Positions 2,428 through 64,000 of a DNA stretch of 64,000 bases are shown piece after piece; positions within the stretch are counted from its first letter, which is position 1, and every line of letters starts with the position of its first letter. The DNA comes from a virus, in IMG/VR virus record IMGVR_UViG_3300009684_000032, positions 1-64,000 of that record. One strand, given 5' to 3'. The position numbers were made by a program, and so were the translations under genes. Below the pieces are notes generated by a model. The model saw nothing but the letters and a program-made list of their open reading frames with translations. It ran no database searches and had not been told where the DNA came from.

Positions 2428-2457
2428 AGTGGTTGTGCATCCATTTTAGATGTTTAT

Positions 2458-3996: not shown

Positions 3997-4020
3997 GCTG
4001 ACATCCTAATACTTGCTGAG

Positions 4021-4028
4021 TATTTATC
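4021..4028 (-). promoter_or_regulatory. T4-like late promoter, GATAAATA
   Basis: GATAAATA on the minus strand sits 25 bases before the tail-spike ATG at 3996, leaving a leader of about 18 bases that includes AGGA. It matches the T4 late consensus TATAAATA at seven of eight positions. Confidence 0.65.
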
Positions 4029-4040
4029 GGGATGTCTATG

Positions 4041-4736: not shown

Positions 4737-4783
4737 GTAGCAATTATATCACATGTGTAAATCAGTGTCTAATGAATAATTTA

Positions 4784-30491: not shown

Positions 30492-32117
<1,626 letters not shown>

Positions 32118-47640: not shown

Positions 47641-47648
47641 TATTTATA
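47641..47648 (-). promoter_or_regulatory. T4-like late promoter, TATAAATA
   Basis: An exact TATAAATA, 27 bases before the gp19 ATG, with AAGGAG in the leader. Confidence 0.75.
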
Positions 47649-47685: not shown

Positions 47686-48273
47686 TTAAATATTATGATT
47701 ATACAGTACCACTGCTACCAGATGTATACGATCTTCTTTACTAGCATTTACAGCGGTATGCAATGGTAGTGTGTTTGTTTCCCACCATGTAGATGCAGTC
47801 AAATGTTGTACTTCATTTTCAATTATCATAAAACAACCTTCTTGGGTTTTAATTGGATAATGTATACGTATATTAGCGTCTGTATGCCAACTCAGACAAG
47901 TTTTAGGTTTGGATTTCATAATGCGAACTCTGCCTAATTTATAACGTTTAGCAAGTTCATTATATACATGTTCAAATAACGTATGTTTAAATTGAGAACA
48001 CATTGTAGAGAAATCAGATTCAGTATAAGGGGTGTCATATTTTTTGACTTCTATACGCTCATTACCAAACTGATCTATAATTTGTTTAGATGCAGACCAA
48101 TCATGTGTTAAACTGCCGCAGCCTTTTAAAAAATCGTCGGGTGCATCTACTGTAGTATTAAGACAAATTTGATTGTCATTACTCCACTTAATTGCATTAT
48201 TATGCAGCATTGAATTTAATTCACTATACAAATCGTAAATAGGCAAGCCTGTTAATTTACTAAAATTAGTCAC
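47686..48273 (-). CDS. Aspartyl/asparaginyl beta-hydroxylase-like Fe(II)/2OG oxygenase
   Basis: The C-terminal half (from about residue 110) reads KPKTCLSWHTDANIRIHYPIKTQEGCFMIIENEVQHL, then LPLHTAVNASKEDRIHLVAVVL. The HTD, distal His and following Arg fit the iron and 2-oxoglutarate sites of the aspartyl/asparaginyl hydroxylase family. The N-terminal half is not recognised. The GTG start (48273) overlaps the SDR gene by eight bases. Substrate unknown. It is the first gene of the accessory island after the tail genes. Confidence 0.7.
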   Translation of the reverse strand: MTNFSKLTGLPIYDLYSELNSMLHNNAIKWSNDNQICLNTTVDAPDDFLKGCGSLTHDWSASKQIIDQFGNERIEVKKYDTPYTESDFSTMCSQFKHTLFEHVYNELAKRYKLGRVRIMKSKPKTCLSWHTDANIRIHYPIKTQEGCFMIIENEVQHLTASTWWETNTLPLHTAVNASKEDRIHLVAVVLYNHNI

Positions 48274-48772
48274 TTAAAATTATCTCCACTGCGTCGTTAA
48301 TAGATATGTAATCACTTTCGGTAAATTGTGTATATTTTGCTAATATTTTAGGAGTTCCTACATATCCAAACCATTTGTATTTAACTTGAACAGCAGTTGT
48401 AATACGAGACAGATCGTCTGATAATGTACGCAATGCACGTTTATGCATGCTATATTCTAATAAATGCGAACGATTGTAATCTAGCACAATGTTATTTTCT
48501 GCAATTCTGCTACCGACATTAATAATTACTTTATGCTGGTCTCTCCATGCATGCCACAATTCTAGACACATCTCAGACTGCCCGAAGCCTGCCGGCGCAT
48601 TGTTAATAAACACGTCGCAGTTGTATACCTCTTGTATTATTTGTTTACGAATACTGCGTAGCGATATATCGTATCCAGTGGATTTGCTAAAACCAATGGC
48701 ATTAGGCGATAGCTTATCATATAGCGCAGCGCCTATACCATAAGTGTGTCCTGTAATAGCATATGTTGTCAT
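48266..48772 (-). CDS. Short-chain dehydrogenase/reductase-like protein
   Basis: The 168-residue protein is a short SDR. TYAITGHTYGIGAALYDKL is the NAD(P)-binding glycine motif, CDVFINNAPAGFGQ is the NNAG-like motif, and YSMHKRALRTL has the catalytic Y-x3-K. Typical SDRs are about 250 residues, so it lacks most of the substrate-binding C-terminus. ATG 48772 directly follows a small open frame (TAACATG). It may reduce or oxidise an intermediate of the neighbouring pathway; that is inference. Confidence 0.75.
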   Translation of the reverse strand: MTTYAITGHTYGIGAALYDKLSPNAIGFSKSTGYDISLRSIRKQIIQEVYNCDVFINNAPAGFGQSEMCLELWHAWRDQHKVIINVGSRIAENNIVLDYNRSHLLEYSMHKRALRTLSDDLSRITTAVQVKYKWFGYVGTPKILAKYTQFTESDYISINDAVEIILSD

Positions 48773-48773
48773 G

Positions 48774-48860
48774 TTATAATCTACCAAATTTCAATTGTTG
48801 ATGCACCAATGTAGTGTTATTATGCAACTGACATACGGGCATCTCTGTCATAATTATCAT
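48774..48860 (-). CDS. 28-residue small open frame coupled to the SDR gene
   Basis: MIIMTEMPVCQLHNNTTLVHQ... ends one base before the SDR ATG. AAGGA lies 8 bases before its own ATG. It could be a leader peptide for translational coupling, a small protein, or chance. It has one Cys and two His. Confidence 0.4.
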   Translation of the reverse strand: MIIMTEMPVCQLHNNTTLVHQQLKFGRL

Positions 48861-48985
48861 TTTAAAATCCTTGTTATAGAACATAAAACATTACATATAT
48901 TTGTAAGCAACGTGTTTATAACGTACTAACTTTTATAGTATACAGCGCAGAATTCATCGATGTCATTATTCAAATTACCGTCAAC
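48861..48985. other. AT-rich divergent intergenic region
   Basis: About 125 bases between the minus-strand unit (28-residue frame and SDR) and the tandem promoter of the plus operon. No T4-like late motif and no hairpin with a U-tract were seen. A minus-strand promoter for the SDR and hydroxylase genes should lie here, but none matches clearly. Confidence 0.5.
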
Positions 48986-49063
48986 GCGACATAGTTTTAA
49001 ACAGTACATATACTTGTTCATATATTGACGTAGTTTCAAGTGGCACATATACTTGTTTATATT
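48986..49063 (+). promoter_or_regulatory. Tandem 39-bp repeats each carrying a sigma70-like promoter
   Basis: Two adjacent 39-base units share TATACTTGTT and spacing. Unit 1 (48986-49024) has GCGACA, 17 bases, TATACT. Unit 2 (49025-49063) has TTGACG, 17 bases, TATACT. The second is a near-consensus sigma70 promoter, 34 bases before the ATG at 49087. Confidence 0.65.
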
Positions 49064-49086
49064 GAAACATGTAAGGCAGACTTTTC

Positions 49087-50295
49087 ATGACATCAGACCT
49101 AAAAAAGAATTTAGATCCAATTGCACGAGTTCAGGCAAAATTACCAGGCATGAACGTGCCAATGACAGGTGTTCCTGAGAACGACAATATAACACTTCTA
49201 CCGGACCGTCCACCTATTTTTCATAATGTTCCAAATTATGATATTGAAAAGAATCCGTTTTCGTTTCTTTATTTAGATATGACATACAAGTGCAATATGG
49301 AATGTGGATTTTGCGATACTCCTATCAGGCATTACAAAGACATGCCTATTGATATTTTTGAAGACTTGTGTCGAAGATTGCCACGCCCGGTAAACATGCG
49401 ATTTGTGGGTGCTGAACCGACCCTTTATAAAAATTTACACAAAGCAATTGAAATCGGTACAAAATATGGACATCAGCTTGCTATTGTTACCAACGGAATA
49501 CGTCTTTCAAATAAAAACTTTGTAAAAGATTTAAAAAATACCATTGATAACTGTGCAGACCCTAAATTAGTAAATTTATCGGTTTCCCTTAACGGTGGAT
49601 TTGTGAGAGACGATTGGTACGAAACGATTGATCATGATATTAGTCACCGCAAGAAAAAGGTACAAGGACTTGAAAATCTCATTGAAGCCGGATTTAAACG
49701 TATTTGTATTAATGCAATCATTATTAAAAATTTAAATGAGGGTGTTGTACAAGAGTTCTATGACAAAGCTAATAGCTTGCCGCCGGGTGTTATCACCAAT
49801 ATACGATTCCGGTGTGCTGCAAAGCAAGGGCGTTATGTAGAAGGATTGTATGAAAATGAAGATGATCACACATCTTATACCGGAGTTGAACTCAACAACT
49901 ACATTAAGACAATTATTCCAGAGGCAAATGATCCAATCAAATGGATTCGCGATGGTATAAACCCGTCAGACGGTGCAGGCAATCACTTGAACAATCCAAA
50001 GTTGAAGTGCAATCAATGCTGCTTGATGTATTATATCAAACCTAAGCTATGGGTTGCAACTGTTGAATTTGGATCACACAATTCGGCATTATGCTGGAGA
50101 CGTGGACAGTTCGTTACAAGTACGCAAACTATTCAACCTGCACACCACTACATAGATGAACTAAGCAGATATATTAACACCTATATACCAGATGGTATGA
50201 AAACATATTCAGAACATCAGCTTAAGAAAAAGATGTATGATGATTTTCAAGACAAAGGTATCAATCCACTTATATCAACTAACTGGCAAGAATAA
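49087..50295 (+). CDS. Radical SAM enzyme, first gene of plus-strand biosynthetic operon
   Basis: The 402-residue enzyme has TYKCNMECGFCDTPI (C69, C73, C76) as the CxxxCxxC cluster, then MRFVGAEPTLYKNL (the GGEP-like SAM motif) and IVTNGIRLSN. The C-terminus has more cysteines (LKCNQCCLMYY and SALCWRRG), which could hold an auxiliary Fe-S cluster as in SPASM/Twitch enzymes. Such enzymes often modify peptides or small substrates. AAGG is present 12 bases before the ATG. It leads a seven-gene, mostly overlapping operon. Substrate unknown. Confidence 0.88.
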   Translation: MTSDLKKNLDPIARVQAKLPGMNVPMTGVPENDNITLLPDRPPIFHNVPNYDIEKNPFSFLYLDMTYKCNMECGFCDTPIRHYKDMPIDIFEDLCRRLPRPVNMRFVGAEPTLYKNLHKAIEIGTKYGHQLAIVTNGIRLSNKNFVKDLKNTIDNCADPKLVNLSVSLNGGFVRDDWYETIDHDISHRKKKVQGLENLIEAGFKRICINAIIIKNLNEGVVQEFYDKANSLPPGVITNIRFRCAAKQGRYVEGLYENEDDHTSYTGVELNNYIKTIIPEANDPIKWIRDGINPSDGAGNHLNNPKLKCNQCCLMYYIKPKLWVATVEFGSHNSALCWRRGQFVTSTQTIQPAHHYIDELSRYINTYIPDGMKTYSEHQLKKKMYDDFQDKGINPLISTNWQE

Positions 50296-50296
50296 T

Positions 50297-50530
50297 ATGA
50301 AAATAATAGACGTGTATCATCTATCGAATGTCGGTGAATCATATTGGCAACATCTTAAATGGTGTGCATATTCTACCGTTATATTTTCTATAATGCTGGT
50401 ATTAGCAATAATACATGGAATTTTTCCATTCTTGTTGGCTGACATCCCAGATAAAGTTATGATAAATTATGTGAAAAATTTTAAATTACGTAGGGTAGTT
50501 ACCGGACAGGAAGAAAGAAACCCAGAATAA
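50297..50530 (+). CDS. DUF6356-like small membrane protein, 77 residues
   Basis: MKIIDVYHLSNVGESYWQHLKWCAYSTVIFSIMLVLAIIHGIFPFLLADI has the pattern of DUF6356: H-x2-S/N-V-GESY-x2-H, then one or two hydrophobic segments with IHG-x-FPF. The family is typical of alphaproteobacteria, sometimes with capsule or aromatic-compound genes. One membrane helix (about residues 27-47) is visible. The ATG follows the previous stop by one base, and the stop overlaps the next start. A membrane anchor or transport helper for the pathway is possible. Confidence 0.75.
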   Translation: MKIIDVYHLSNVGESYWQHLKWCAYSTVIFSIMLVLAIIHGIFPFLLADIPDKVMINYVKNFKLRRVVTGQEERNPE

Positions 50531-51648
50531 TGTTTTCAAAAGCATATATTCCATATAGAGGTTACTATACTTCGCCGTTTGTTAGATATGGAAAAAGTTT
50601 TAAAGATTATAACTCGATAGAGCTCAGTGCAACTACTACAAAAGAATGGATGGGTCATAATAAAATTGACCCATCCATTATTGATTTTGTGCTATATGGA
50701 ACGTCTGTGCATCAACACAGAGGATTTTGGGCAGGGCCATGGGCCGCTGCACTAATAGGCGCATCGCATACTACAGGGGCTATGTTAAGCCAAGCATGTA
50801 CCACTGCTGCGACTGCTCTATATCAAGCTGCTGCAAATACTGAATTGGGGTTGTGCAGGACAACATACTGCCTAGTATCAGACAGAACCTCTAATGGTCC
50901 TATCATAAATTGGCCGGAGTACGATATAACCGAAGATTGGGTGAATGATAATTTTGAATATGATCCGTGGGGCAAAACCTCCATGTTACAAACTGCTGAA
51001 AATGTTGTTACATTTAACAATATAAGCAGACAACAACTAGACGACGTAACAGCACATCGATACGCACAATATAACACTATTGTAGAAAAACCTTACATGT
51101 TCAAAACTGCCGATGTTGTCAATGATCAGGGTGTAAAACAAGTAGATATTAAAAGACTCACACGATTAAAATCAATAAATCCAAATAGTGTTCATACATT
51201 GGGCAATGTAACATATCCAGCCGACGGTCATTGCGGAATCATAGTAACAGACATTAATACTGCCATGTTGTTTAGCGATATAAAAATACAAATATTGTCA
51301 TATGGATATTCCAGGTGCGATACATCGTTTATGCCGTTAGCCTCTATAACTGCAACATCCATGGCATTAAAAAAAGCAAATCTTTCTATCAGAGATATGA
51401 CTGTTATCAATCAACATAATGCATTTGTAGTTAACGATATTGCATTTGCTAATTATTTTGGAAACGATGTTTACAATATGAATAACTATGGCAGTCCGTT
51501 AGTGTACGGACATCCACAAAGCCCTGTACTCGGCCGGCTTGCTATTGAAGGCATAGAAGAATGCATCAACAAAGGTGGCGGTTATGTATTAGTAACTGGT
51601 GCAGCCGGCGGCGACACGGGAGCAGCATTAATATTGAAAGTAAATTAA
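50530..51648 (+). CDS. Thiolase-like condensing enzyme lacking the C-terminal cysteine
   Basis: The 372-residue protein has thiolase-fold features. MLSQACTTAATAL carries the nucleophilic Cys (about residue 90), VINQHNAFVVNDI stands where thiolases have NEAFA, and NNYGSPLVYGHPQSPVLGRL is the GHP motif. At the C-terminus, where thiolases have CxGxG, this reads VTGAAGGDTGAAL, so the second active-site Cys is Ala. Such proteins may condense without normal thiolase acid-base chemistry, as in SCP-x-like or KAS-like relatives. It starts at the last base of the preceding gene. Confidence 0.8.
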   Translation: MFSKAYIPYRGYYTSPFVRYGKSFKDYNSIELSATTTKEWMGHNKIDPSIIDFVLYGTSVHQHRGFWAGPWAAALIGASHTTGAMLSQACTTAATALYQAAANTELGLCRTTYCLVSDRTSNGPIINWPEYDITEDWVNDNFEYDPWGKTSMLQTAENVVTFNNISRQQLDDVTAHRYAQYNTIVEKPYMFKTADVVNDQGVKQVDIKRLTRLKSINPNSVHTLGNVTYPADGHCGIIVTDINTAMLFSDIKIQILSYGYSRCDTSFMPLASITATSMALKKANLSIRDMTVINQHNAFVVNDIAFANYFGNDVYNMNNYGSPLVYGHPQSPVLGRLAIEGIEECINKGGGYVLVTGAAGGDTGAALILKVN

Positions 51649-52262
51649 TGTCATTTGACGTACCATGGCCCAATTGGAAAGGACAAAAGTTTTTAGGAGA
51701 GATTGATTTATCAACTCCATCTCTTATAGATTATTTAGATTGTCCACAGGCAGAACCTTTAAAAGAAAACATTTTAAAAATCATAGAACGAAACAACTGT
51801 AAAAACATAGTTGATGTGGGCTGCGGCGATGGTAAATTCACTGAACGTCTAATATTAGACAATTATTTGGGGTTTGATGCAGAGCATCGTATGATAAAAC
51901 GAGCGAACAGACGTTATAAGCATAGAACAAATTTCGAATTTAGACATTGTACATGGGACGACGACATAACAGTTGAGTTCGAGGTAGACTGCTTGATGTT
52001 TGTAGGCACGCTAAGTTATAATGTAAATCACATTGTTGGATTTGAAAAACTATGCAAACTCTATAATCCTAGAATAGTAATAATACAAGAAATTTTACAA
52101 GATCAAACATATATAGCAGAAACAAATAAGTTAAAAGCTATGCCATTAGACTATTATTTGAGTTATAAACACAATTACTATGAATTTGATTTACCCGTTT
52201 GGTGCGGGCACAGGGCACAACTGGAGATTTTCTATAATGGCACAATTTACAAAACAAGTTAA
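51648..52262 (+). CDS. Class I SAM-dependent methyltransferase
   Basis: The ATG at 51648 overlaps the thiolase-like stop (TAATG) and yields MSFDVPWPNWKGQKFLGE, 204 residues. NIVDVGCGDGKFTERLI is the SAM-binding motif I, LGFDAEHRMIKRANRRY has the acidic motif II, and DCLMFVGTLSYN is near motif IV. It transfers a methyl group to an unknown acceptor, presumably an intermediate of the operon's product. It overlaps the next gene by 26 bases. Confidence 0.85.
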   Translation: MSFDVPWPNWKGQKFLGEIDLSTPSLIDYLDCPQAEPLKENILKIIERNNCKNIVDVGCGDGKFTERLILDNYLGFDAEHRMIKRANRRYKHRTNFEFRHCTWDDDITVEFEVDCLMFVGTLSYNVNHIVGFEKLCKLYNPRIVIIQEILQDQTYIAETNKLKAMPLDYYLSYKHNYYEFDLPVWCGHRAQLEIFYNGTIYKTS

Positions 52263-53016
52263 GGCACCAGTTTTACCTGAAGTCGCATCAGTTATAAGCA
52301 GTATTAATTTAAATATACTGTCAAATGATACACCATATACCACTACAATTAAAGAGTGGCTTAAACCTGTCATAGATTTATCTGATTTTTGGGTTTACCC
52401 TATTAACGGAATATCAGAAGGTCTTAACTATTGGATGGGCAACGAAACAAGAGCAATATACAAAGATCTGGGTGATTACGAATGGGTAGACGGCGATTTT
52501 AGTAATGGTGCTATAAAATACGTATCGATACCCAGTTCTATAGATGGAAATTTTAGAGAAATCCCACAAGACATACCAGTTGCGTTAGATATTGCATATG
52601 TTGGCACAACTGCTATACAAAAGATAGACATAGGCAAAAATGTAGAAAAAGTATTTTTCAGTTTGAGTAAACCGTTTGGTCTTAAAAATGTAAGGACTGG
52701 CTGGTATTTTACTAGAAAAGTAGATGTTAAATTGCAACGACTGCATATCAAATCAAACTATTACAATTATTATGCACATACTATAGCCGAGTCAGTTATA
52801 CAGTCGTTTCCAGTAGACTATGTATATAACAAATTTTGGAAACTACAAACAGAGGTATGTGCTGCACATATGCTAACCCCTAGTAATAGCGTGTGGCTTG
52901 CAACTTCAATTGATCACAAATACAAAGATTTTAGAAGAAATAACGGCAGGCTTTATGTAAAACACACCGAAAAAGCAAGACTATGCATTACGGAATTTTT
53001 AAATGATCAATGTTAG
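52237..53016 (+). CDS. Short PLP-dependent aminotransferase-like protein
   Basis: From ATG 52237 (MAQFTKQVKAPVLPE), 259 residues. Fold-type I aminotransferase motifs are visible: YPINGISEGLNYWMGNETRA, VALDIAYVGTT (the Asp that binds the PLP pyridine, with Tyr), and FFSLSKPFGLKNVRTGWYF (Schiff-base Lys and carboxylate-binding Arg). It is about 100 residues shorter than typical class I enzymes. The chemistry could still be intact. The partial gene at the right edge has the same motif order. Confidence 0.78.
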   Translation: MAQFTKQVKAPVLPEVASVISSINLNILSNDTPYTTTIKEWLKPVIDLSDFWVYPINGISEGLNYWMGNETRAIYKDLGDYEWVDGDFSNGAIKYVSIPSSIDGNFREIPQDIPVALDIAYVGTTAIQKIDIGKNVEKVFFSLSKPFGLKNVRTGWYFTRKVDVKLQRLHIKSNYYNYYAHTIAESVIQSFPVDYVYNKFWKLQTEVCAAHMLTPSNSVWLATSIDHKYKDFRRNNGRLYVKHTEKARLCITEFLNDQC

Positions 53017-53914: not shown

Positions 53915-55326
53915 TGTATAATGCAGTAACAGATTTTATACGTCGCAATAATAAAATTGCCATATATTACAAAGATACAACAGTGTCATACGACGAGTTG
54001 TATACAAACGTTTGCAGGTATGCAAATGCAATTAAGTTGCAATTTAATATTGGCGATAAAATACTTATTAATATGTCTGACAGACCTGAATACATTTACA
54101 TGTTTTGGGGTGCAGTTAAGTCTGGTATCGTTCCTGTACTAGTTAATACCATGCTAACAAAAAAAGAATATGATTCCATACACAATACTAGCAATCCGGT
54201 TTACGAATTTAACGACACAAACATTGGCAAGTTTGATAGCGAAGCAACTGATTTAACAGATTTTGCTGCTGCAACTACTACCAAGGATGATATATGTGTT
54301 ATTATGTATTCGTCTGGTACCACAGGATACTTAAAAGAAATATCGCATAAACATAAAGACATTGCCGTAACATGCAAAAATTATGCGGCAAATATATTAA
54401 ACATATCAGACGATGATATTTTGTATAGTGCTGCAAAATTGTTTTTTGCATATGGATTTGGAAATAGCATGTCATTTCCATTTTATTTTGGTGCATCTAC
54501 TGTGTTAATTTCAGAGACGTCTAGTGCTAAGATTGTATTAGACACTATTGAAAAATACCGCCCAACTATATATTTTGGTGTACCATCTATATATGCACAA
54601 CAAATTAAATCAATAAAAGCAAATAGCTACGACACGTCGTCATTAAAGCTGTGTGTCTCAGCTGGAGAGCCGTTGCCTGGAAAACTACTAGATGAATGGA
54701 TGCAACTTACCAATACTATAATACTTGACGGTATAGGTAGCACCGAAGCTCTTCATATTTTTATATCTAATACAAAAGATATGTTCGAACACAATTGCTC
54801 CGGACAAATTGTTCCTGGCTATACTGCAAAAATACTAGATCCAATCACTAATATGCTAACAGTAGACGGCGACATAGGCGATCTATACATATTCGGAGAT
54901 AGTATCAGTACTATTGGCATTGATTGGTTAAAAACTGGTGATATGTATATTAAACGAGGAGAGAAATATTACTATCAAGGCAGATCAAACGATATGTTAA
55001 AAGTTGGTGGTGTTTGGGTGTCACCCGCTGAAATTGAAGCTAAAATTATAGAACACGATGGAGTGTTAGAAGCAGGTGTAGTTATAGGTACAAATCTATC
55101 AGGATTATTAAAACCAAAAGCATTTGTTGTTTTGACAGATCCCAATAATGCCACAATAGCAACCAAGAATAGCATTAAACGAAAATGTATGAGTGAATTG
55201 CCAGCGAATCATTATCCGTATTGGGTAGACTTTGTTACAACCCTACCTAAAACTGCTACTGGAAAAATACGTAGACATATACTTAGAACCTATGATGTTT
55301 TTAGCCCACCCAACTTAAATGATTGA
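53911..55326 (+). CDS. AMP-forming acyl/aryl-CoA ligase (ANL superfamily)
   Basis: A complete 471-residue adenylating enzyme. ICVIMYSSGTTGYLKEI is the ATP-binding P-loop (about residues 130-145), LDGIGSTEALHIF is the A5 motif, DWLKTGDMYIK is A7, YYYQGRSNDMLKVGGVWVSPAEIE is A8 and LPKTATGKIRRHIL is A10 with the catalytic Lys (about 452). It activates a carboxylic acid as an AMP ester and passes it to CoA or a carrier thiol. Its length fits benzoate-CoA-ligase-like members. It overlaps the preceding stop (ATGA), and its 3' end overlaps the convergent oxygenase gene by 12 bases. Confidence 0.93.
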   Translation: MMYNAVTDFIRRNNKIAIYYKDTTVSYDELYTNVCRYANAIKLQFNIGDKILINMSDRPEYIYMFWGAVKSGIVPVLVNTMLTKKEYDSIHNTSNPVYEFNDTNIGKFDSEATDLTDFAAATTTKDDICVIMYSSGTTGYLKEISHKHKDIAVTCKNYAANILNISDDDILYSAAKLFFAYGFGNSMSFPFYFGASTVLISETSSAKIVLDTIEKYRPTIYFGVPSIYAQQIKSIKANSYDTSSLKLCVSAGEPLPGKLLDEWMQLTNTIILDGIGSTEALHIFISNTKDMFEHNCSGQIVPGYTAKILDPITNMLTVDGDIGDLYIFGDSISTIGIDWLKTGDMYIKRGEKYYYQGRSNDMLKVGGVWVSPAEIEAKIIEHDGVLEAGVVIGTNLSGLLKPKAFVVLTDPNNATIATKNSIKRKCMSELPANHYPYWVDFVTTLPKTATGKIRRHILRTYDVFSPPNLND

Positions 55327-55950
55327 TCCCCAATCGCAATAACCGCTAAAATTAATAAAAACTCTAACTATATCTGAATTTCTAACTCCATGAATTACCT
55401 TGCTTGCATTTAGTACAGTCGGGTGTGCTGTGCTATAAATGTGTGTTCCCAACAAATAGTTGTCATTGTGTTCAACTGTTTTATACGCACCTTTATCAAC
55501 TATTGGCAAATCATTGTTATATAAATGCACAGTTGCCCCGCCCTCTGCTGGCAATATAGGAACCATAATACTGCAAGACCTAGCAAAGTCTTTATGGGGC
55601 GGTAATTCAAATCCAGGCCCATATATCCACATTACAGGAAAATTAGGTACATCTGTTTTAGTGATGTATTCCAATTCTTTTATTAGACTATTAATTTCTG
55701 GATTATCAAATCTTTCTAAATGTCTAATAAATTTGTGTTTATCGCCGGAATGTTCATGTTTGCCGTTTGGCAAACACTTTGAGCAAATACATCTAAAATA
55801 TGGGCTGTGTTCTGCACCATGCTCTATATATGAGGTATGACGTTCTATATAACTAATTGCTTTGTATTCTATGCTATAATAAAACTGTTCTAGTGCAGAC
55901 CTGTCATATGTAATAGATTTTAATTCTTTTATGTGATCAGACGTTATCAT
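55315..55950 (-). CDS. Fe(II)/2OG oxygenase-like protein with Cys-rich region
   Basis: The 211-residue protein has GFELPPHKDFARSCSIMVPILPAEGGATVHLYNN, then HPTVLNASKVIHGVRNSDIVRVFINFSG. The HxD and distal His with Arg fit the iron and 2-oxoglutarate ligands. Residues 45-70 carry CICSKCLPNGKHEHSGDKHK, a CxCxxC with histidines that may bind a metal. It overlaps the end of the upstream gene by 14 bases. Probably an oxidative tailoring enzyme. Substrate unknown. Confidence 0.7.
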   Translation of the reverse strand: MITSDHIKELKSITYDRSALEQFYYSIEYKAISYIERHTSYIEHGAEHSPYFRCICSKCLPNGKHEHSGDKHKFIRHLERFDNPEINSLIKELEYITKTDVPNFPVMWIYGPGFELPPHKDFARSCSIMVPILPAEGGATVHLYNNDLPIVDKGAYKTVEHNDNYLLGTHIYSTAHPTVLNASKVIHGVRNSDIVRVFINFSGYCDWGSII

Positions 55951-56476: not shown

Positions 56477-56530
56477 ACTATATGTATTCTATCTAACTTG
56501 TGGCCAGTAATAGCATATCTAAGTGTCATA

Positions 56531-57166
56531 TTAAAGTTTTCCAAATCCCCACAGTCGTTCTTCACACCACCAACACTTTCCGCAATGCCCATTACCGGGA
56601 TCAGGCCATTCGTGATTGATCCATTCGCAACTTCTAGTTATAGGATACAATGTATCCAACAAATTATGTTGCTTATATATAAAATACAAATCTTGTTTAT
56701 CTAAGTTAGTCCAAGGTATATACAAGTTGCCTATTTTAACAGGTCGCACAACAGCAGGATCGCGTTCAACGTTTTCTGTATTTTCTAATGTAAACGTATC
56801 TATCACATCAACTGGTGGATTTTTAGTAACGCCCGTGTATATGGTTGATAGTGTGTTATCTGCAAGGTATTGCAAAGGTAAAATGAATAGATTTTCTTTT
56901 GTCTGTGACACTTCATATTTAATATGATGAACAAAATTGTAATTGCCAGTCAGTTCTGCACACTTGCTAATAACGTTTAGAGCTGCATGCATATTTCTCA
57001 ACCATTTCTGTTGATTTGCTGATGAAAATATGTGAATTGTAGAAGTAGAATATTTCAATGCAAAATATAACATAAGCGCACTATCTACACCGCCACTGAC
57101 ACATATACCTATTTTACCAGGATAAACATTAAATTCAACTGTATCTGTTATATTATAAGATTTCAT
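56531..57166 (-). CDS. QueC-like PP-loop ATPase (first copy)
   Basis: GKIGICVSGGVDSALMLYFALKY is the PP-loop motif SGGxDS (residues 24-29). The C-terminus reads LYPITRSCEWINHEW, GHCGKCWWCEERLWGFGKL, with the cysteine-rich zinc site and R-x2-F ending typical of QueC/ExsB-like enzymes. These adenylate a carboxylate or amide and add nitrogen, as in 7-cyano-7-deazaguanine synthesis. At 211 residues it is near QueC size. ATG overlaps the radical SAM stop by four bases. The second copy at 58314 shares all motifs. QueD and QueE cannot be assigned here, so the substrate may differ. Confidence 0.82.
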   Translation of the reverse strand: MKSYNITDTVEFNVYPGKIGICVSGGVDSALMLYFALKYSTSTIHIFSSANQQKWLRNMHAALNVISKCAELTGNYNFVHHIKYEVSQTKENLFILPLQYLADNTLSTIYTGVTKNPPVDVIDTFTLENTENVERDPAVVRPVKIGNLYIPWTNLDKQDLYFIYKQHNLLDTLYPITRSCEWINHEWPDPGNGHCGKCWWCEERLWGFGKL

Positions 57167-58290
57167 ATTGACCTGCTTTTAGGTATTTTACTATCGGCAG
57201 AACTAACACATGCATTGGATATGCATGGCATTGGTCTGTCAAACAGTTTAAAACCAGTTTCTATATAACCCAACGGTTTATCACTACAGCTATAGCTGCG
57301 TTTAATAGCACCATCCGGTTCCCGTATTATAATACTTCTATAACCGCTTTCGCAATTCCACCCTTTAAATTGATTAAAATTAAAAGCATTAAATCGTTCT
57401 GCTTGATCCATATACCATTTTTTGCCAGTATTATCTTCAAACTCTACTTGCATAATTTGCGGAACCGTGGCATCATCCCCGTTAGTTATGCTCATCATTT
57501 GCATACCAACGTTCGGCTTAGGACGAGTTACAATACTTTTTACAGAGGTAAAATCACGCTGCGGCATACCGTTGTGCAGCACCGACAATTGCGCAGTAGT
57601 ATACCCTTCTACTATACGGCTAGCAGTAGGGTCGCTTTGAGGCTTCAATGTTACATTTATACCCCTACTCAAGAAATATTCTGCTTCTTCGTATAGTGTA
57701 TCAAACCACTCAGGAACCATCACTGTATTAACAGTTACTTGCACAGCATTCTCTTGCAAGTATACCAGCTTGTCTGCAAACTTTTCAGTGTGTCCTTTAA
57801 GATCGCCTTGCTTGATACCTTGCTCACGATGCCAACTAGCAGTTACACTTACCCTATGTAAATCACGTGTTACATTTACATATTTTTCAAACCAAAGTAG
57901 ATTTTGACTAATATTGCTAGTCATATGAACACTTTGATAATTGCAATTCGCAGTATCTGCACTGTAATGTTCTAATAATCTAAGATAATCAGGATAAACT
58001 GTTGGTTCGCCGCCACTAAAACTAAAGTGAAAACTGTTGAAATTGCGTTCGCGGCTTTGACGCTTAATCTCATCTACGGTTAACACATTTAGTTCATATG
58101 GTCTATAATCTTTAGTATCGCTACGAGCATACGGCCAACAGTAACTACATTTGTAGTTGCAAAAACGTCCAAGTAACCAGCTTACACAGAATATATCTCT
58201 ATACAACAGTGTACGTTGACCGAAGCGTGTTATATCATCAAATGGTATTTTTGTGAAGTCGTATTGACTCCATTCTATTTTATTATCCAT
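57163..58290 (-). CDS. Radical SAM enzyme with extra C-terminal cysteines, between two PP-loop ATPases
   Basis: The 375-residue enzyme has GRFCNYKCSYCWPYAR (C44, C48, C51) as the SAM cluster and FHFSFSGGEPTVYPDYL as the GGEP motif. Later residues include KGWNCESGYRSIII, RSYSCSDKPLG and MPCISNACVSS, which could ligate an auxiliary cluster (SPASM/Twitch-like). It is flanked by the two QueC-like genes and overlaps one of them. A coupled radical SAM plus PP-loop reaction series is likely; the substrate is unknown. Confidence 0.9.
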   Translation of the reverse strand: MDNKIEWSQYDFTKIPFDDITRFGQRTLLYRDIFCVSWLLGRFCNYKCSYCWPYARSDTKDYRPYELNVLTVDEIKRQSRERNFNSFHFSFSGGEPTVYPDYLRLLEHYSADTANCNYQSVHMTSNISQNLLWFEKYVNVTRDLHRVSVTASWHREQGIKQGDLKGHTEKFADKLVYLQENAVQVTVNTVMVPEWFDTLYEEAEYFLSRGINVTLKPQSDPTASRIVEGYTTAQLSVLHNGMPQRDFTSVKSIVTRPKPNVGMQMMSITNGDDATVPQIMQVEFEDNTGKKWYMDQAERFNAFNFNQFKGWNCESGYRSIIIREPDGAIKRSYSCSDKPLGYIETGFKLFDRPMPCISNACVSSADSKIPKSRSI

Positions 58291-58313
58291 AAAACCAACT
58301 AACTAGTGAAAAT

Positions 58314-59030
58314 TTATAACTTTCCAAATGCATATAACCGTTCTAGACAAAAATAGCATGTACCACAATGTGCAGGGTCTGTATACTGTGCTTGCATATC
58401 ATTTTCGCAAGACCAAGTATACGGATACAACTCGTCTAATACATTATAATCGTTATATATGCCATACACAACTCTTTTATCGTGTTCTGCAAATGGCAAA
58501 TACAGTGCAGTATTGCCTATATTAGAAATAGTAGGCGCAGTAGCGACATCGCGAGATATATCGCGTGTTTCTAAAGATTTTAAACATGCAATTTTGTCTA
58601 CATCGTCTGACATAGCTGCTATCATTTGCATCATGTCATATTCAGGACAGTTGACCGACATACCTGCATATCTTGCGTCAATCTCAAGTTCATCAAACAC
58701 AACAGCTTCTAAATCTTCTTGCCCTTTGGTATATTCATAGGAATTGATATCCCATGCATTTTGTGCATTATGACTGTCGTGGAATAGTGTATAGTGTTGA
58801 GTAGCCATCCTGCCCGTTAACCTGTTTACTATACGAATAACATCTTGTGCTTTACATATTGCATGCGGCCGCAATGGGCTAGCCATAGTATATGGATATA
58901 TGTTAACAGATGCATCGTTTTTATAAAATTCACATATAGCATGATATATAATTGCACTATCCGGACCACCAGATAGTCTTACTGCTATATTGCGATGATG
59001 ACGGTCGAGTGGTATTACAGTATCTATCAC
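58314..59030 (-). CDS. QueC-like PP-loop ATPase (second copy)
   Basis: RNIAVRLSGGPDSAIIYHAICEF carries SGGPDS. The C-terminal PYTWSCENDMQAQY, AHCGTCYFCLERLYAFGKL repeats the zinc-site pattern of the other copy. It has 238 residues. The GTG start overlaps the stop of the B12-type radical SAM gene (GTGA). Divergence between the two copies outside the motifs suggests different substrates or a heteromeric enzyme. Confidence 0.82.
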   Translation of the reverse strand: MIDTVIPLDRHHRNIAVRLSGGPDSAIIYHAICEFYKNDASVNIYPYTMASPLRPHAICKAQDVIRIVNRLTGRMATQHYTLFHDSHNAQNAWDINSYEYTKGQEDLEAVVFDELEIDARYAGMSVNCPEYDMMQMIAAMSDDVDKIACLKSLETRDISRDVATAPTISNIGNTALYLPFAEHDKRVVYGIYNDYNVLDELYPYTWSCENDMQAQYTDPAHCGTCYFCLERLYAFGKL

Positions 59031-60535
59031 AACTCTGTCCTATAATCTTTATCTGTTAGCACATTATCGTAGCGACGTAATTCTTTATCAATCATCCATC
59101 CAGAATTTGTTTTATTATTCAGCTGTTGAATAAGTTCATTTATTTCTTTAAAACGTCTTGCACGTACTGCGAGTGTATTGCCTTTATAATCCCATTCGAA
59201 TGCATTTTTAAAATTGGTTATGTCGTCTTTTACAAGATCCCACAACAAATGATCGTCTGACAACATTAATGTATTACCAAAACTTAAATATAATAATGTG
59301 TCACCGTTTTTGTTTGTTGCATCTGCATAACCCAAATTATACAATCGCCGTATAGTGTTTAACGTATGCTGATGGTCATCTTCAGTTTCAGTAGGGTAAC
59401 CTACTATCATTAATAATGTATGTTTAATCTGGTACTTGCGCAGCATATCAAAACACCACCACATATCGTCGTCTGTGAATTTTTTACCCATGTGATATCT
59501 CACATGTTGGCTAAAAGACTCAATGCCTATATCAAGCTCTGCACAACCACTATCTGCCATTAACTGATAATCTGTCTCCGGCGATTGTGATTTAGATCTA
59601 ACTATCCATTGACTCGCCCATTGGAAATTATTATCAGTTTTATGATAGTCTGCCAGTTCTGTTAATAATGATCTAAAAGATTTCATACTGCCGTTTATTA
59701 AACTGTCTGTAAATTTAAAGAATTGACGATTATATTGTTGTCTAACTGCAATAATTTCGTCTGCTATATGACGACCTGATCTAAATCTATATTCAGGCCA
59801 CAGTTGATATACATTACAGAATGTGCAGCGTTTTACACAGCCTCTGCTACCAGTTATATAAACAGGATTGGTATAATCTATAGTCTTATATTCATCCCAT
59901 TTGATATCATCGTAATTTGGAAGCATTACTGTGTTTAAATCGAGAACTTGATTTGGATTCAACGAATCTATACCGTTAGATGTCAAGTTACCTTTTAACA
60001 ATTCAACTATACTAAATTCACCGTCGCCGGAAATATAATGATCAAGTATACCTATGTCTTTAAATTTCTGTATACCATTTGCTATTTGAGCACCTCCCCA
60101 TACAATTTTAGTATTAGGTAAATGTTCTCTTATTAATATACTGAGTTGTATTGCAACAGAATTACTGTACATAGATAAAATACTTAAACCTATCCACGTT
60201 GGATTTCGAATCTTAAAGTCTTCTATCCATTCCATGAATATATGACGATTTTCTTCATAAAAATCTATAAAATCTTGACTAAAATAAATCAGATTTCGTT
60301 CTACATCTAGATCATTATGATGTGTACTAAAAAGACTGTCGTGCTCAAAAAAATAATAATCATGTTTGTTGATAGATTTTAAGCTATTATACAATCTAAT
60401 ATTTAGATCCATCACTTCGCAACTAAAACCTGCATACATTAAATGCGATTTCAATACAGCTGGTCCAACAGTGGGAGCATCAGGGTTTATTTTAGGTATT
60501 ATACAAATAATAATATCTGTCATTGCTACATCCAT
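59027..60535 (-). CDS. B12-binding-domain radical SAM enzyme (island copy)
   Basis: The 502-residue enzyme has the same layout as the 5810-7273 gene: a cobalamin-binding-type domain (IIPKINPDAPTVGPAVLKSH, GLSILSMYS, IVWGGAQIANG) and a radical SAM core with GCVKRCTFCNVY, then SDSGCAELDIGIESFSQ. It carries small insertions relative to its paralog. ATG 60535 overlaps the upstream stop (TAATG). It probably methylates or rearranges a carbon skeleton in the island's pathway. Confidence 0.92.
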   Translation of the reverse strand: MDVAMTDIIICIIPKINPDAPTVGPAVLKSHLMYAGFSCEVMDLNIRLYNSLKSINKHDYYFFEHDSLFSTHHNDLDVERNLIYFSQDFIDFYEENRHIFMEWIEDFKIRNPTWIGLSILSMYSNSVAIQLSILIREHLPNTKIVWGGAQIANGIQKFKDIGILDHYISGDGEFSIVELLKGNLTSNGIDSLNPNQVLDLNTVMLPNYDDIKWDEYKTIDYTNPVYITGSRGCVKRCTFCNVYQLWPEYRFRSGRHIADEIIAVRQQYNRQFFKFTDSLINGSMKSFRSLLTELADYHKTDNNFQWASQWIVRSKSQSPETDYQLMADSGCAELDIGIESFSQHVRYHMGKKFTDDDMWWCFDMLRKYQIKHTLLMIVGYPTETEDDHQHTLNTIRRLYNLGYADATNKNGDTLLYLSFGNTLMLSDDHLLWDLVKDDITNFKNAFEWDYKGNTLAVRARRFKEINELIQQLNNKTNSGWMIDKELRRYDNVLTDKDYRTEL

Positions 60536-61245
60536 TATACAATCCCACGAGGCGTTATGAGCAACTGCTCTACCGTACCTTCAAAATTAATATGCATACC
60601 CATTTTCCATGCACCTACAAGTTTACCAGTGCAATGTAAATTGTTGGCATTGAACAATATCATATTGCCGGGTTTGAATTCGTATGCAGTACCTGTTAAC
60701 CCTTTAAAGTGACTGGGTTTATGCTGTGGATAAGCGAGGTATTTGCCGTAAAATTCCGGATCTATGTCGTAGTCGGTTTTATCATATACTCTGGGATCGT
60801 TATAGGGTGTTAAATTGGTTTTTTTGTTAAAATCGAAATCGTAATTGGCAATGGTATCTACTCTGTCACCATACCATGTTTGTCCAAATCCGTTATCTAC
60901 CCATTGATCAAATACCACAAAATGCTGCGGAGCAACAGGTTCGTGTAGATATATTGGCAACAAACAGTTTATCAATTGATACGGCTCGCCAGAATCAACA
61001 TGTGTTGTATAAAGATTGGAATGTTTGTATATATTGCCACCCTGTCCTTTATTAGTAACAAAGTACTTTGAAAAAATAGGATTTAACACATCTCCCAAAT
61101 GTGTCCACGGCGAATTGATCTTTATCACATCAGGGTTGTTGGGTTTGCGCACATATAATGAATTATGCGTATCAAAGAAATTCTTAATATACTCGCACAC
61201 ATCCAATGGTATTGCATCTTCAACTACCATATGTCGTAATGTCAT
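60535..61245 (-). CDS. Fe(II)/2OG oxygenase-like protein, 236 residues
   Basis: HSNLYTTHVDSGEPYQLINCLLPIYLHEP carries an HxD iron motif. Further on, YEFKPGNMILFNANNLHCTGKLVGAWKMGMHINFEG carries the distal His and a basic residue, in the order expected for 2OG-Fe(II) oxygenases. The middle (NGFGQTWYGDR, then FNKKTNLTPYNDPRVYDKTDY) is an insert that I do not recognise. AGGAG precedes the ATG. Likely an oxidative tailoring enzyme. Confidence 0.7.
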   Translation of the reverse strand: MTLRHMVVEDAIPLDVCEYIKNFFDTHNSLYVRKPNNPDVIKINSPWTHLGDVLNPIFSKYFVTNKGQGGNIYKHSNLYTTHVDSGEPYQLINCLLPIYLHEPVAPQHFVVFDQWVDNGFGQTWYGDRVDTIANYDFDFNKKTNLTPYNDPRVYDKTDYDIDPEFYGKYLAYPQHKPSHFKGLTGTAYEFKPGNMILFNANNLHCTGKLVGAWKMGMHINFEGTVEQLLITPRGIV

Positions 61246-61266
61246 GTTATGCTCCTGTATACAGTG

Positions 61267-62409
61267 TTAATTAGCTAGAGATGTTAAAAATTTATGCAAC
61301 GCAGGATTATAATCTTCTAATCGTGTGTTGTAAAATTCGTCTAGCTGTTTAGTATAGTATACAAAATCTTGCCAATGTTTAGCATTATATTCGTTGACTT
61401 TTAAGAAATTAGTTACGAGTGTATGTGCCCATTGATTACCAGCATTACATTCTAAAATCCAGTCCACATACGCAGCAGGTGCATATAACAGTGACAAGCT
61501 ATAAGGGTATCTTACAAAGTCAACACTCATATGATATCCGTTGTCTACCACAAGAGTATTAACTGTGGATGCAAAATCATTGGCTGTCAACAACGACACT
61601 ACAGTGTGAAAGGATGTTATAACATTATCAAATATTTCACTGTAGAGTTTGGTATTGGCAAATATTTCCAAATACGAGCTACCGTACCGTTGATAATCAT
61701 TGGCTTTACTATAGCTGTCAAGGCTTACATGAATGTCCAGAGTTTGAAACTTATTGAGTTTATGTATAAGTTCCTGCGATGGTACAACTGTGCCATTTGT
61801 AGCAATTTCAATTGTAATTTTAGACGGATCTGCTCTGTCTATTAGATAGTCTATGAATTTTACAAAGTTGGGAGTCATAAATGGTTCACCTCCCAATACC
61901 TTAACCAATTCCAAATCTGTCAAGTCTGTATTATCGTATTTTCTAAAATTAGGTTCTAGTTTTTTATGAACTGGTTCTCCTAGAAATCTATCTCTATTAA
62001 CAAGCTTGGTACTGAATTTGCTATCACACATTTTGCATTGTAGATTACAAATATTGTCTATAGACATTTCTATATAACGTAATTTGTCAAATTGATCAGT
62101 GCAGTTTGCTTGCTGTATATTTGGAAATCTACTATTGATATATGTACGCAACGAACTGGCATTGTTGGCACCCTCTTGATCATAACATTTTGTGCAGCCG
62201 GGTGATTTAATACCGGCTAGCATATTTGAACGTAGCATAGTTAAGCTGGCAGTATTCATTACTGCAATACCCTGTGCTTCAAGATCATCTAATGCGATGT
62301 CAATACGTGTGTCATCTTTGGTATTTTGAAATCTGCAACAGGGTTTCAAACTGTTATCTGGTCGGACACACTGATGTATCCAAGGCAATACACACCATGT
62401 GTCTGTCAT
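61267..62409 (-). CDS. Radical SAM enzyme with N-terminal SPASM/Twitch-like cysteine cluster
   Basis: I choose ATG 62409 (MTDTWCVLPW), two bases after the upstream stop; a longer in-frame start inside that gene is unlikely. Before the core come C6, C14, C24, C25, C72 and C75 (CVLPWIHQCVRPDNSLKPCC and GCTKCYDQEG), an auxiliary-cluster arrangement placed at the N-terminus. The radical SAM motif is CNLQCKMC (C121, C125, C128), followed by VKVLGGEPFMTPNF and IEIATNGTVV. It has 380 residues. Such enzymes often act on peptides or nucleoside-like substrates. The substrate is unknown. Confidence 0.9.
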   Translation of the reverse strand: MTDTWCVLPWIHQCVRPDNSLKPCCRFQNTKDDTRIDIALDDLEAQGIAVMNTASLTMLRSNMLAGIKSPGCTKCYDQEGANNASSLRTYINSRFPNIQQANCTDQFDKLRYIEMSIDNICNLQCKMCDSKFSTKLVNRDRFLGEPVHKKLEPNFRKYDNTDLTDLELVKVLGGEPFMTPNFVKFIDYLIDRADPSKITIEIATNGTVVPSQELIHKLNKFQTLDIHVSLDSYSKANDYQRYGSSYLEIFANTKLYSEIFDNVITSFHTVVSLLTANDFASTVNTLVVDNGYHMSVDFVRYPYSLSLLYAPAAYVDWILECNAGNQWAHTLVTNFLKVNEYNAKHWQDFVYYTKQLDEFYNTRLEDYNPALHKFLTSLAN

Positions 62410-62411
62410 TG

Positions 62412-63539
62412 TTAACTTATCCCACGGTCTACATCTATAGAACCGAACCCAATGATAGATTGTTTGTATTCTGTAGATACTGATGGTAACTCGTTGCTCT
62501 GTAAGAACCACGATGAACTATGCCATCTTGCAGTATCAAATACCATCATAGTGTTACATCTCCATTCGTAAACACTATGTACATTCAAACATGCATATTC
62601 CTTACAGTACTGAGTATTTACAGGATTATAACGTAACACCTCGTCATCATACCACCAGTCCCGTATATCATCCGGTCTGTACTTAAACACTTCGTCGTTA
62701 TCCATATATCGCATTTCACCTTTGCGATAAATCAGCTTACGTGGTACATCGCTTACACAGTCATAGTTAACAGTATATGGTTGCTTGCATGTCCATTCCA
62801 ACGGTATAATGACACCTATTACAATATGACAATCATGAGTAATAAAATTGTTGTCTACTACTCGCCAAGTATTGGGCAATGACACATAGTCGGTATGCAA
62901 TCCTGCAGGTTCACCCGATTTGAAATATTCAAAATTCCAATCCATTTTTATGTTAAGATAGTTATTAACATATGCAGACAAGTATGTCTTGGTGTCAGCA
63001 GGCACGGACACAAACTTATTATGTCCCAACGATCCACTTATTTTAACATTTGCAGATTCCAGTGCTGACGTAGCATCCACACGATATTTAAGTATGTCTA
63101 AATCTATATTATTACTGCCATACTGTATCACATTGTTTTTTAATGCCACACACTGTTTGACTTCATCTAATTTAAAAAAGTTCAAATTCTTAACAGCCTG
63201 TTTAATAACAGATGCATGAATGGTATGACGTATATTACGTGCAATTAATATACCAGAATGAGAAAGAAACTGTTTAACATGTTTATACAATGCATGCCAA
63301 TCAACAGGTTCTTCTGTTACACCAATAGTAATGATATCATACTTTTTATGACTAGACATTTTTACAGCGTCGGGTGCATAAACTTCTCTATATGACCACT
63401 CTGGGAACTGTTGCTTTACAGTATCTATCAGCTGACAGTCAGCTTCTCCTATTTCTAACAACGACCCATGCTGACCAAACTGCGTCATTTGATCAACTAT
63501 TAACTGCATTTCCTCTGGAAATATCCAACCTTTTGTCAT
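62412..63539 (-). CDS. Methyltransferase-like + Fe(II)/2OG oxygenase-like fusion
   Basis: The first 150 residues look like a class I methyltransferase domain (GSLLEIGEADCQLIDTV, KYDIITIGVTEE, LYKHVKQFLSHSGILIARN) with a degenerate glycine motif. The rest looks like a 2OG-Fe(II) oxygenase (FKSGEPAGLHTDYVSLPNTWRVV, then NTMMVFDTARWHSSSWF) with an HxD and a distal His. A bifunctional hydroxylase-methylase or a scaffold-regulated oxygenase is possible. It overlaps its upstream neighbour by four bases. Confidence 0.7.
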   Translation of the reverse strand: MTKGWIFPEEMQLIVDQMTQFGQHGSLLEIGEADCQLIDTVKQQFPEWSYREVYAPDAVKMSSHKKYDIITIGVTEEPVDWHALYKHVKQFLSHSGILIARNIRHTIHASVIKQAVKNLNFFKLDEVKQCVALKNNVIQYGSNNIDLDILKYRVDATSALESANVKISGSLGHNKFVSVPADTKTYLSAYVNNYLNIKMDWNFEYFKSGEPAGLHTDYVSLPNTWRVVDNNFITHDCHIVIGVIIPLEWTCKQPYTVNYDCVSDVPRKLIYRKGEMRYMDNDEVFKYRPDDIRDWWYDDEVLRYNPVNTQYCKEYACLNVHSVYEWRCNTMMVFDTARWHSSSWFLQSNELPSVSTEYKQSIIGFGSIDVDRGIS

Positions 63540-64000
63540 CTTCGTTCTACTTTTTCAATCTCATTTAAACCCAAATCTGTTCCACGAGCATCAAATACCC
63601 CTTCTATTAAAAAGCGCAGTGGTGTGCGTATCCCATATTGTACAGGATTATCTGTAGAATTTCTTAATAATCCAACATGTATACTATTGCCTTCTTCTAA
63701 CCCAAAGTCTTTACACACTTTACTGTATAAGTCGCTATAATTGTTCCACCAGTAGTCTGGACCAAAATGACGCATCATCTCAGTACCTATCCACATATCA
63801 CTTACATTACAATATTCAAAGTCATTCATTATGGCAATGGGACCATTAACACGCTCACGACTATAGCGTATACCTATACGTTGACTACCCATACCAAATG
63901 CTTTGCTAAGACTAACACTAACACTGGCTATAGCAGGATGTGTTACATCTAATTCAAAGTTCCTGCATTGTCCAAACCATGCACCGTCTATATGTACGGG
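63536..64000 (-). CDS. PLP-dependent aminotransferase, N-terminus beyond window edge
   Basis: The open frame runs off the right edge; 154 C-terminal residues are present. HIDGAWFGQCRN carries the PLP-binding Asp. ASVSVSLSKAFGMGSQRIGIRYSR has the Schiff-base Lys and the substrate-binding Arg. A methionine inside the frame (63892) is not the true start, because the PLP motifs lie upstream of it. The motif order matches the short aminotransferase at 52237. It is the first visible gene of the minus operon. Confidence 0.82.
   Translation of the reverse strand, partial: PVHIDGAWFGQCRNFELDVTHPAIASVSVSLSKAFGMGSQRIGIRYSRERVNGPIAIMNDFEYCNVSDMWIGTEMMRHFGPDYWWNNYSDLYSKVCKDFGLEEGNSIHVGLLRNSTDNPVQYGIRTPLRFLIEGVFDARGTDLGLNEIEKVERR

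What the first reader, a model, noticed from the sequence alone, without database searches (positions are those of the whole stretch)
47686..64000. Phage-borne biosynthetic island of about 16 kb built from two opposed operons
Adjacent to tail genes lie at least four radical SAM enzymes, two PP-loop ATPases, up to four Fe(II)/2OG oxygenases, two PLP aminotransferases, two methyltransferase domains, a thiolase-like enzyme and an adenylating ligase. Most are coupled by 1-26 base overlaps. This is the composition of a specialised-metabolite or modification pathway, not of usual phage accessory genes. Possible products are a modified nucleoside for DNA protection, a decorated surface glycan, or a diffusible small molecule. 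The sequence does not decide among them.
Basis: partly seen in the sequence, partly recalled or inferred. Interest (0 to 1): 0.88.

Follow-up and report, generated by a model that had tools for sequence, protein, structure and literature searches.

The report
Radical-SAM biosynthetic island in giant phages
An uncultured large phage carries a real, tightly packed block of about twenty unusual metabolic enzymes between two tail genes; the same modules, anchored by one almost unchanging radical-SAM enzyme, recur in over two hundred uncultured phage sequences and in some predatory bacteria, most likely to build and decorate a sugar-type molecule whose identity is still unknown.

Summary
Window 47,686-64,000 holds 19 enzyme-like genes in coupled opposed operons, and a second contig of the same phage adds three radical-SAM (rSAM) genes beyond the window edge. 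The island lies between the tail-sheath and tail-tube genes. It consists of two conserved modules. The block g19-g16 followed by g13 recurs in 7 of 7 other contigs found with g16. The g03-g11 block recurs in one other phage contig. The key gene is g13, a single rSAM enzyme 62-88% identical in over two hundred viral stretches, often near the end of variable arrays of rSAM, PP-loop, SDR, PLP and 2OG genes. It is absent from 50,697 isolate phage records. Orthologues, usually with two companion rSAMs (rS360, rS470) and often a GT-A-like protein, sit in 17 of 291 Bdellovibrionota genomes, several near glycosyltransferases. Best reading: a modular tailoring pathway acting on a sugar-type molecule (surface or virion glycan). 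The chemistry is not shown. Protein modification, a diffusible metabolite and DNA-base modification remain open. Kindred clusters are known in cyanophages and pelagimyophages. The invariant rSAM core shared with Bdellovibrionota was not found in the papers searched.

The parts
47018..47614 (-). tail tube protein (flank, right after the island in reading direction)
   Evidence: phrog_4542 tail tube, E=1.3e-50
47686..48273 (-). g01 Asp/Asn beta-hydroxylase-family 2OG oxygenase
   Evidence: PF05118 38.8 bits, cut-off 22.6; HTD motif
48266..48787 (-). g02 mini SDR-like protein; its family lies directly upstream of g13 in 28 of 81 related loci
   Evidence: GxxxGxG and YxxxK, no Pfam hit; cluster c2
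49087..50295 (+). g03 radical SAM enzyme
   Evidence: PF04055 53.9 bits; 83% identical in L151
50297..50530 (+). g04 small membrane protein DUF6356
   Evidence: PF19883 36.3 bits, cut-off 24.4; relatives in other g13 arrays
50530..51648 (+). g05 thiolase-like enzyme
   Evidence: PF02803/PF00108 above cut-off; QAC and GHP motifs; 65% in L151
51648..52262 (+). g06 SAM methyltransferase
   Evidence: PF13649 32.3 bits
52237..53016 (+). g07 small PLP fold-type-I-like enzyme
   Evidence: SLSKPFG motif; no Pfam hit; 60% in L151
53003..53914 (+). g08 unknown, glycosyltransferase-like by eye only
   Evidence: phrog_13607 of unknown function; no significant PDB hit; 56% in L151
53911..55326 (+). g09 AMP-forming acyl/aryl-CoA ligase
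   Evidence: PF00501 189.6 bits; benzoate-CoA ligase family TIGR02262 above cut-off
55315..55950 (-). g10 2OG oxygenase-like
   Evidence: HKD motif, no Pfam hit; 69% in L151
55937..56476 (-). g11 GNAT-like by eye
   Evidence: no Pfam or PHROG hit; 46% in L151
56531..57166 (-). g12 QueC-like PP-loop ATPase
   Evidence: PF06508 25.6 bits, cut-off 22; SGGVDS, CxxCxxC
57163..58290 (-). g13 invariant core radical SAM enzyme of the whole system
   Evidence: PF04055 50.1 bits; 224 viral stretches; invariant C44/C48/C51 and CVSSADS tail
58314..59030 (-). g14 QueC-like PP-loop ATPase
   Evidence: SGGPDS, CxxCxxC; PF06508 21.3 bits, just under cut-off
59027..60535 (-). g15 B12-dependent-type radical SAM enzyme
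   Evidence: PF04055 60.2 bits, PF02310 below cut-off; best NCBIfam match PhpK family, far below cut-off
60535..61245 (-). g16 2OG oxygenase-like
   Evidence: HVD motif; 54-79% in 7 other phage contigs, all with g13
61267..62409 (-). g17 N-terminal-twitch radical SAM enzyme
   Evidence: NF033640 239 bits, cut-off 170
62412..63539 (-). g18 2OG oxygenase-like domain with an N-terminal extension
   Evidence: HTD motif; 46-79% in related modules, several with the C-terminal domain only
63536..64000 (-). g19 PLP enzyme (C-terminal half; full gene L126:5243-6172)
   Evidence: Lys188/Asp160 invariant in A3. Upstream on contig L126: rSAM386 4086-5246, rSAM303 3205-4095, rSAM468 1809-3215, then the sheath-family gene ending at 1726

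Best explanation
The island is one version of a modular, radical-SAM-centred tailoring system of large uncultured phages. A fixed core, g13 plus two companion rSAM enzymes often encoded together elsewhere in the genome (rS360, rS470), carries out a common step on a common substrate. Interchangeable modules add lineage-specific changes: amino groups (PLP enzymes), hydroxyls or desaturations (2OG enzymes), carbon-skeleton changes or methyl groups (rSAM, B12-rSAM), amide or nitrile groups (QueC-like PP-loop), carbamoyl, acyl and methyl groups. The most likely substrate is a sugar or sugar nucleotide that ends in a glycan on the virion or on the infected cell surface, made variable to escape receptors, defences or competing phages. 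Shown: gene content, motifs, block conservation, the invariant core, sharing with Bdellovibrionota. Inferred: substrate class, order of steps, final location, benefit.
For: g13 orthologues are 62-88% identical in phages whose other array members are mostly 20-50% identical, as expected for a fixed step with variable decoration. rS470 (53-67%) and rS360 (46-53%) occur in most large g13 phage records, adjacent in G297, G299 and G300. g13, rS360 and rS470 also sit together on Bdellovibrionota chromosomes, several near GT2 glycosyltransferases: 11 of 94 flanking proteins match GT2. A companion protein there has a GT-A-like predicted fold (pLDDT 84.6; sugar nucleotidyl- and glycosyltransferases lead Foldseek at modest E about 3e-4). 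UDP-glucose dehydrogenase and carbamoyltransferase families lie next to each other in several phage arrays. The window encodes a cytidylyltransferase-like + mannose-6-P-isomerase-type cupin fusion, also in the closest 518-kb relative at 77%; published phage polysaccharide clusters use such enzyme types (PMC7824862). g13's best structural neighbours are BlsE and viperin, which act on nucleoside or nucleotide substrates (low TM).
Against: No profile-supported glycosyltransferase lies inside the island itself. GT2 was found in only 5 of 15 related phage records and usually far from g13. SPASM/twitch rSAM enzymes often act on peptides. Foldseek TM-scores for g13 are only about 0.4. The window phage's own rS360/rS470 were not seen (fragment).
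Confidence: 0.42

Rival explanations
1. The core rSAM enzymes modify a protein or peptide, for example a virion tail protein or a surface protein, and the variable enzymes add further groups to it.
For: Twitch/SPASM rSAM enzymes with auxiliary clusters are typical of peptide modification; the sulfatase-maturating enzyme is among the best sequence matches of g13; AspH-family oxygenases are frequent; in this clade the island lies between tail sheath and tail tube.
Against: No conserved RiPP-like precursor ORF was found near g13. The position next to tail genes holds only for one clade. Bdellovibrionota with g13 have no virion proteins as substrate.
Confidence: 0.2
2. The pathway makes a diffusible small molecule (nucleoside- or aminoglycoside-like) that acts on host competitors, defence or other phages.
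For: g13's nearest fold neighbours are BlsE (blasticidin S) and viperin; carbamoyltransferase and an amidinotransferase-like protein (below cut-off) occur in related arrays; a cyanophage cluster with carbamoyltransferase, 2OG enzymes and halogenase was proposed to make a secondary metabolite or to decorate polysaccharide (PMC7824862).
Against: No exporter or resistance gene was recognised in the island. The very high conservation of one core enzyme with wide variation of the rest fits a displayed structure better.
Confidence: 0.18
3. The pathway makes a hypermodified DNA base (for example a decorated 7-deazaguanine) that protects phage DNA.
For: QueC-like PP-loop proteins, a QueE-like rSAM and QueD in 9 of 15 related phage records.
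Against: QueD occurs in many jumbo phages, including Phosso, while g13 has no match in any isolate phage; no TGT-family match over cut-off in any of 15 records (divergent DpdA could be missed); singleton QueC-like phage proteins are thought to be another subfamily (PMC6884629).
Confidence: 0.13
4. The array is largely neutral or 'stuffer' DNA, a graveyard of captured metabolic genes.
For: Gene content differs greatly between relatives.
Against: Catalytic motifs are intact, genes are closely packed or overlapping, modules are conserved between distant phages and g13 is under strong constraint.
Confidence: 0.04

Closest known systems
LPS/polysaccharide clusters of T4-like cyanophages (P-SSM2 type; PMC7824862, PMC3037559)
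   Same: Large, variable carbohydrate-type enzyme clusters in big T4-like phages; sugar nucleotidyltransferase/cupin enzymes in the genome
   Different: Those clusters are built on epimerases and several glycosyltransferases; this island is built on rSAM enzymes, has no profile-supported glycosyltransferase and has a fixed rSAM core
Sugar/amino-acid secondary-metabolite cluster of cyanophage S-SSM6a (PMC7824862)
   Same: 2OG oxygenases and methyltransferases; carbamoyltransferases in related g13 arrays
   Different: No halogenase seen here; rSAM enzymes, the core here, are not mentioned in that paper
Host-recognition hypervariable island of pelagimyophages (PMC7029224)
   Same: Hypervariable island inside the structural-gene region of T4-like phages; radical-SAM gene cassettes reported there
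   Different: There between VrlC and gp14, with tail fibres and glycosyltransferases; here between sheath and tube, with a g13-anchored module
7-deazaguanine DNA modification pathway (PMC6884629)
   Same: QueC-like and QueE-like enzymes
   Different: No complete pathway recognised; the island's enzymes are only distant QueC/QueE relatives and no transglycosylase was found in related records
Prokaryotic viperin (pVip) and BlsE
   Same: Nearest sequence and fold neighbours of g13
   Different: g13 scores 40 bits against a viperin cut-off of 180 and has a conserved extra C-terminal Cys region
rSAM array of isolate Vibrio phage K566
   Same: At least four twitch-type rSAM genes close together
   Different: No g13; its rSAM proteins are only 23-28% identical to those here

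Membership tests
N-terminal twitch rSAM family NF033640 (g17) | full-length match above curated cut-off | tested here: met
   239 bits vs 170, residues 25-396
Viperin (g13) | score above family cut-off | tested here: not met
   40 bits vs 180
P-SSM2-type phage polysaccharide cluster | glycosyltransferases inside the cluster | tested here: inconclusive
   g08 looks like one only by eye; no Pfam family over cut-off
P-SSM2-type phage polysaccharide cluster | NDP-sugar-making enzymes encoded by the phage | tested here: met
   cytidylyltransferase-like + mannose-6-P-isomerase cupin at 20261-21028, outside the island; UDP-Glc dehydrogenase family in related arrays; enzymatic role inferred
P-SSM2-type phage polysaccharide cluster | NAD-dependent epimerase/dehydratase in the cluster | tested here: not met
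   none in the island; present in 10 of 15 related phage records, generally away from g13
7-deazaguanine DNA modification | DpdA/TGT-type transglycosylase | tested here: not met
   no TGT match over cut-off in 15 related records; divergent DpdA could be missed and the window itself was not searched for it
7-deazaguanine DNA modification | QueD present and specific to the system | tested here: not met
   present in 9 of 15 records but also in 103 isolate phage records, none of which has g13
RiPP cluster | conserved short precursor peptide gene | tested here: not met
   small-ORF comparison found no array-wide precursor-like family
Any modified-glycan system | altered glycan in virion or cell | not testable with these tools
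   needs mass spectrometry

The most novel reading that the evidence does not exclude
A previously undescribed kind of phage modification system: a near-invariant radical-SAM core (g13, with rS360 and rS470) shared by giant phages and Bdellovibrionota, onto which phages bolt interchangeable rSAM/PP-loop/PLP/2OG modules, up to 23 rSAM enzymes per phage record, to make a hypervariable molecular coat or mark.
Probability: 0.35. Interest if true: 0.88.

Novelty: new variant of a known kind. Interest (0 to 1): 0.7.

Why it matters
It shows that uncultured giant phages carry radical-SAM chemistry in densities more usual for whole bacterial genomes, built around one enzyme conserved well enough to be purified and assayed. 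Finding the product would say what structure these phages vary so strongly, and why some Bdellovibrionota carry the same core. It also supplies many new rSAM and PP-loop enzymes for chemistry.

Tried and rejected
g13 in isolate phages: none of 50,697 records. 7-deazaguanine DNA modification as a specific link: QueD is general to jumbo phages and no TGT match passed the cut-off. RiPP precursor search: nothing conserved array-wide. Late-promoter motif TATAAATA inside the island: none; total matches no more than chance, though one lies just upstream of the tail tube gene. PDB profile search for the PLP enzyme: no hit. g08 fold or function: no significant hit. Chimaera or contamination rejected: independent contigs agree at 99.8% and phage tail genes flank both sides. 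Literature searches for rSAM clusters in jumbo phages or Bdellovibrio found no description of this system in the papers held. Some 'bacterial' g13 contigs look phage-like and were not counted as chromosomal (L084, L091, L101, L104, L106).

Full report
OBSERVATION. The window is nearly the whole of a 64,094-base linear virus record. Its terminase is 48-52% identical to those of the jumbo phages Phosso and Atu_ph07, and it encodes UvsX, SSB, GroEL and T4-like tail proteins, so it is probably a fragment of a large myophage. From 47,686 to 64,000 lie 19 enzyme-like genes. Pfam and NCBIfam confirm four rSAM enzymes, two PP-loop/QueC-like proteins (one just under cut-off), an AspH-family oxygenase, a methyltransferase, a thiolase-like enzyme and an AMP ligase. 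Three more 2OG oxygenases and two PLP enzymes rest on motifs, and the full g19 is supported by an alignment with invariant catalytic residues. The g18 methyltransferase domain, g08 and g11 have no profile support. Genes in each operon overlap by up to 26 bases or nearly abut, and the two operons converge with a 12-base overlap. GC falls from 42% to 35%.

EXTENT. Contig L126, 99.8% identical over 5.4 kb to the window's right end, continues the array: the full g19, rSAM386, rSAM303 (QueE-like), rSAM468, and then a gene of a family of about 1,360 residues (c23) that I take for the tail sheath by position and sequence reading. The island is therefore inserted between tail sheath and tail tube. Other close relatives have arrays in the same place; more distant relatives have them elsewhere.

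MODULES. A search with g16 alone found seven contigs from other phages; all seven carry g13 downstream, g19 (74-84%) and g18 (46-79%), and six carry g17 at 49% or more. A search with g05 found one other phage contig, in which g03, g05, g07, g08, g09, g10 and g11 are conserved at 46-83% in the same arrangement, including the convergent pair. So the island is two transferable modules joined around g12-g14.

THE ANCHOR. g13 gave 224 viral stretches (80 kept; the kept ones are 62-100% identical). In 81 loci the same-strand block around g13 has a median of 11 genes and about 37% of the proteins in such blocks carry CxxxCxxC; a mini-SDR (28) or twitch-type rSAM (22) is the usual gene upstream, mostly overlapping. 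Other rSAM proteins clustering with g13 are only 20-31% identical to it. Alignment of 24 orthologues shows an invariant CxxxCxxC and a strongly conserved C-terminal half ending in CVSSADS. None of 50,697 isolate phage records has g13. Fifteen g13 phage records carry 4 to 23 rSAM matches each.

BACTERIAL RELATIVES. g13 was found in 24 contigs of bacterial genome assemblies, mostly Bdellovibrionota, and in 17 of 291 genomes of that phylum. Flanking genes include, by sequence reading or Pfam, seryl-tRNA synthetase, RNase HII, phenylalanyl-tRNA synthetase and polyphosphate kinase genes, so these are chromosomal. They form one side of a well-supported branch (99/99) of the g13 tree, nearest the window's phage clade. 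The shared set is g13, rS470, rS360 and often a GT-A-like protein and c97. rS470 and rS360 are also present, adjacent in several, in most large g13 phage records. An AlphaFold model of the GT-A-like companion (pLDDT 84.6) matches sugar nucleotidyl- and glycosyltransferases at modest significance. Eleven of 94 flanking proteins are GT2 glycosyltransferases; no matched background was computed for that figure.

MECHANISM. A fixed core with variable surrounding modules suggests a common product or step that is then decorated. The sugar reading rests on the GT-A-like companion, nearby GT2 genes, UDP-glucose dehydrogenase and carbamoyltransferase in phage arrays, the phage's own cytidylyltransferase-like/mannose-isomerase cupin fusion, and BlsE/viperin as nearest folds of g13 (TM about 0.4, weak). 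None of this shows the product. Peptide modification is a serious rival because twitch/SPASM rSAM enzymes often act on peptides; no precursor was found. DNA modification is less likely. A diffusible metabolite cannot be excluded.

COMPARISON. Jumbo cyanophage polysaccharide clusters and a proposed secondary-metabolite cluster are published (PMC7824862), as is a hypervariable island in pelagimyophages with radical-SAM cassettes (PMC7029224). The present system works like those in being a variable biosynthetic island of large T4-like phages, but differs in its rSAM core and its Bdellovibrionota link, which I did not find described (limited to open-access papers). Hence 'new variant of a known kind', with a substantial chance that it deserves its own category.

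LIMITS. Most related records are fragments, so absences are weak. Many array members are named from clustering or by eye; only those cited to searches have profile support. Several IMG/VR records are near duplicates, so 224 is not a count of independent phages. Functions are predictions.

Noticed in passing
window 5810-7273 (-): Another B12-binding radical SAM enzyme far from the island (PF04055 68 bits, PF02310 above cut-off).
   Followed up: no
window 20261-21028 (-): Fusion of a cytidylyltransferase-like domain and a mannose-6-phosphate-isomerase-type cupin; 77% identical copy in the 518-kb relative and relatives in about 70 viral contigs.
   Followed up: partly
window 30492-32114 (-): Phage-encoded chaperonin GroEL (phrog_5725, 577 bits).
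   Followed up: no
window 39138-43367 (-): A 1,409-residue protein with no PHROG match between terminase and tail genes.
   Followed up: no
window 47641-47648 (-): T4-type late promoter motif TATAAATA just upstream of the tail tube gene, i.e. at the downstream edge of the island; the motif is not enriched in the window overall.
   Followed up: partly
L142-L148: A divergent QueD is encoded in all of the largest g13 phage records, outside the arrays.
   Followed up: partly
L149 (Vibrio phage K566) 9846-16588: An isolate phage with at least four twitch-type rSAM genes close together, near a gene annotated PagP (lipid A acylation) and a nicotinamide phosphoribosyltransferase.
   Followed up: partly
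L084, L025: A contig filed in a Rickettsiales genome assembly has the same length and match position as an IMG/VR viral contig, so phage contigs appear to sit in bacterial genome bins.
   Followed up: no
L043, L066, L129: The small membrane protein family DUF6356 (g04) recurs in other g13 arrays.
   Followed up: no
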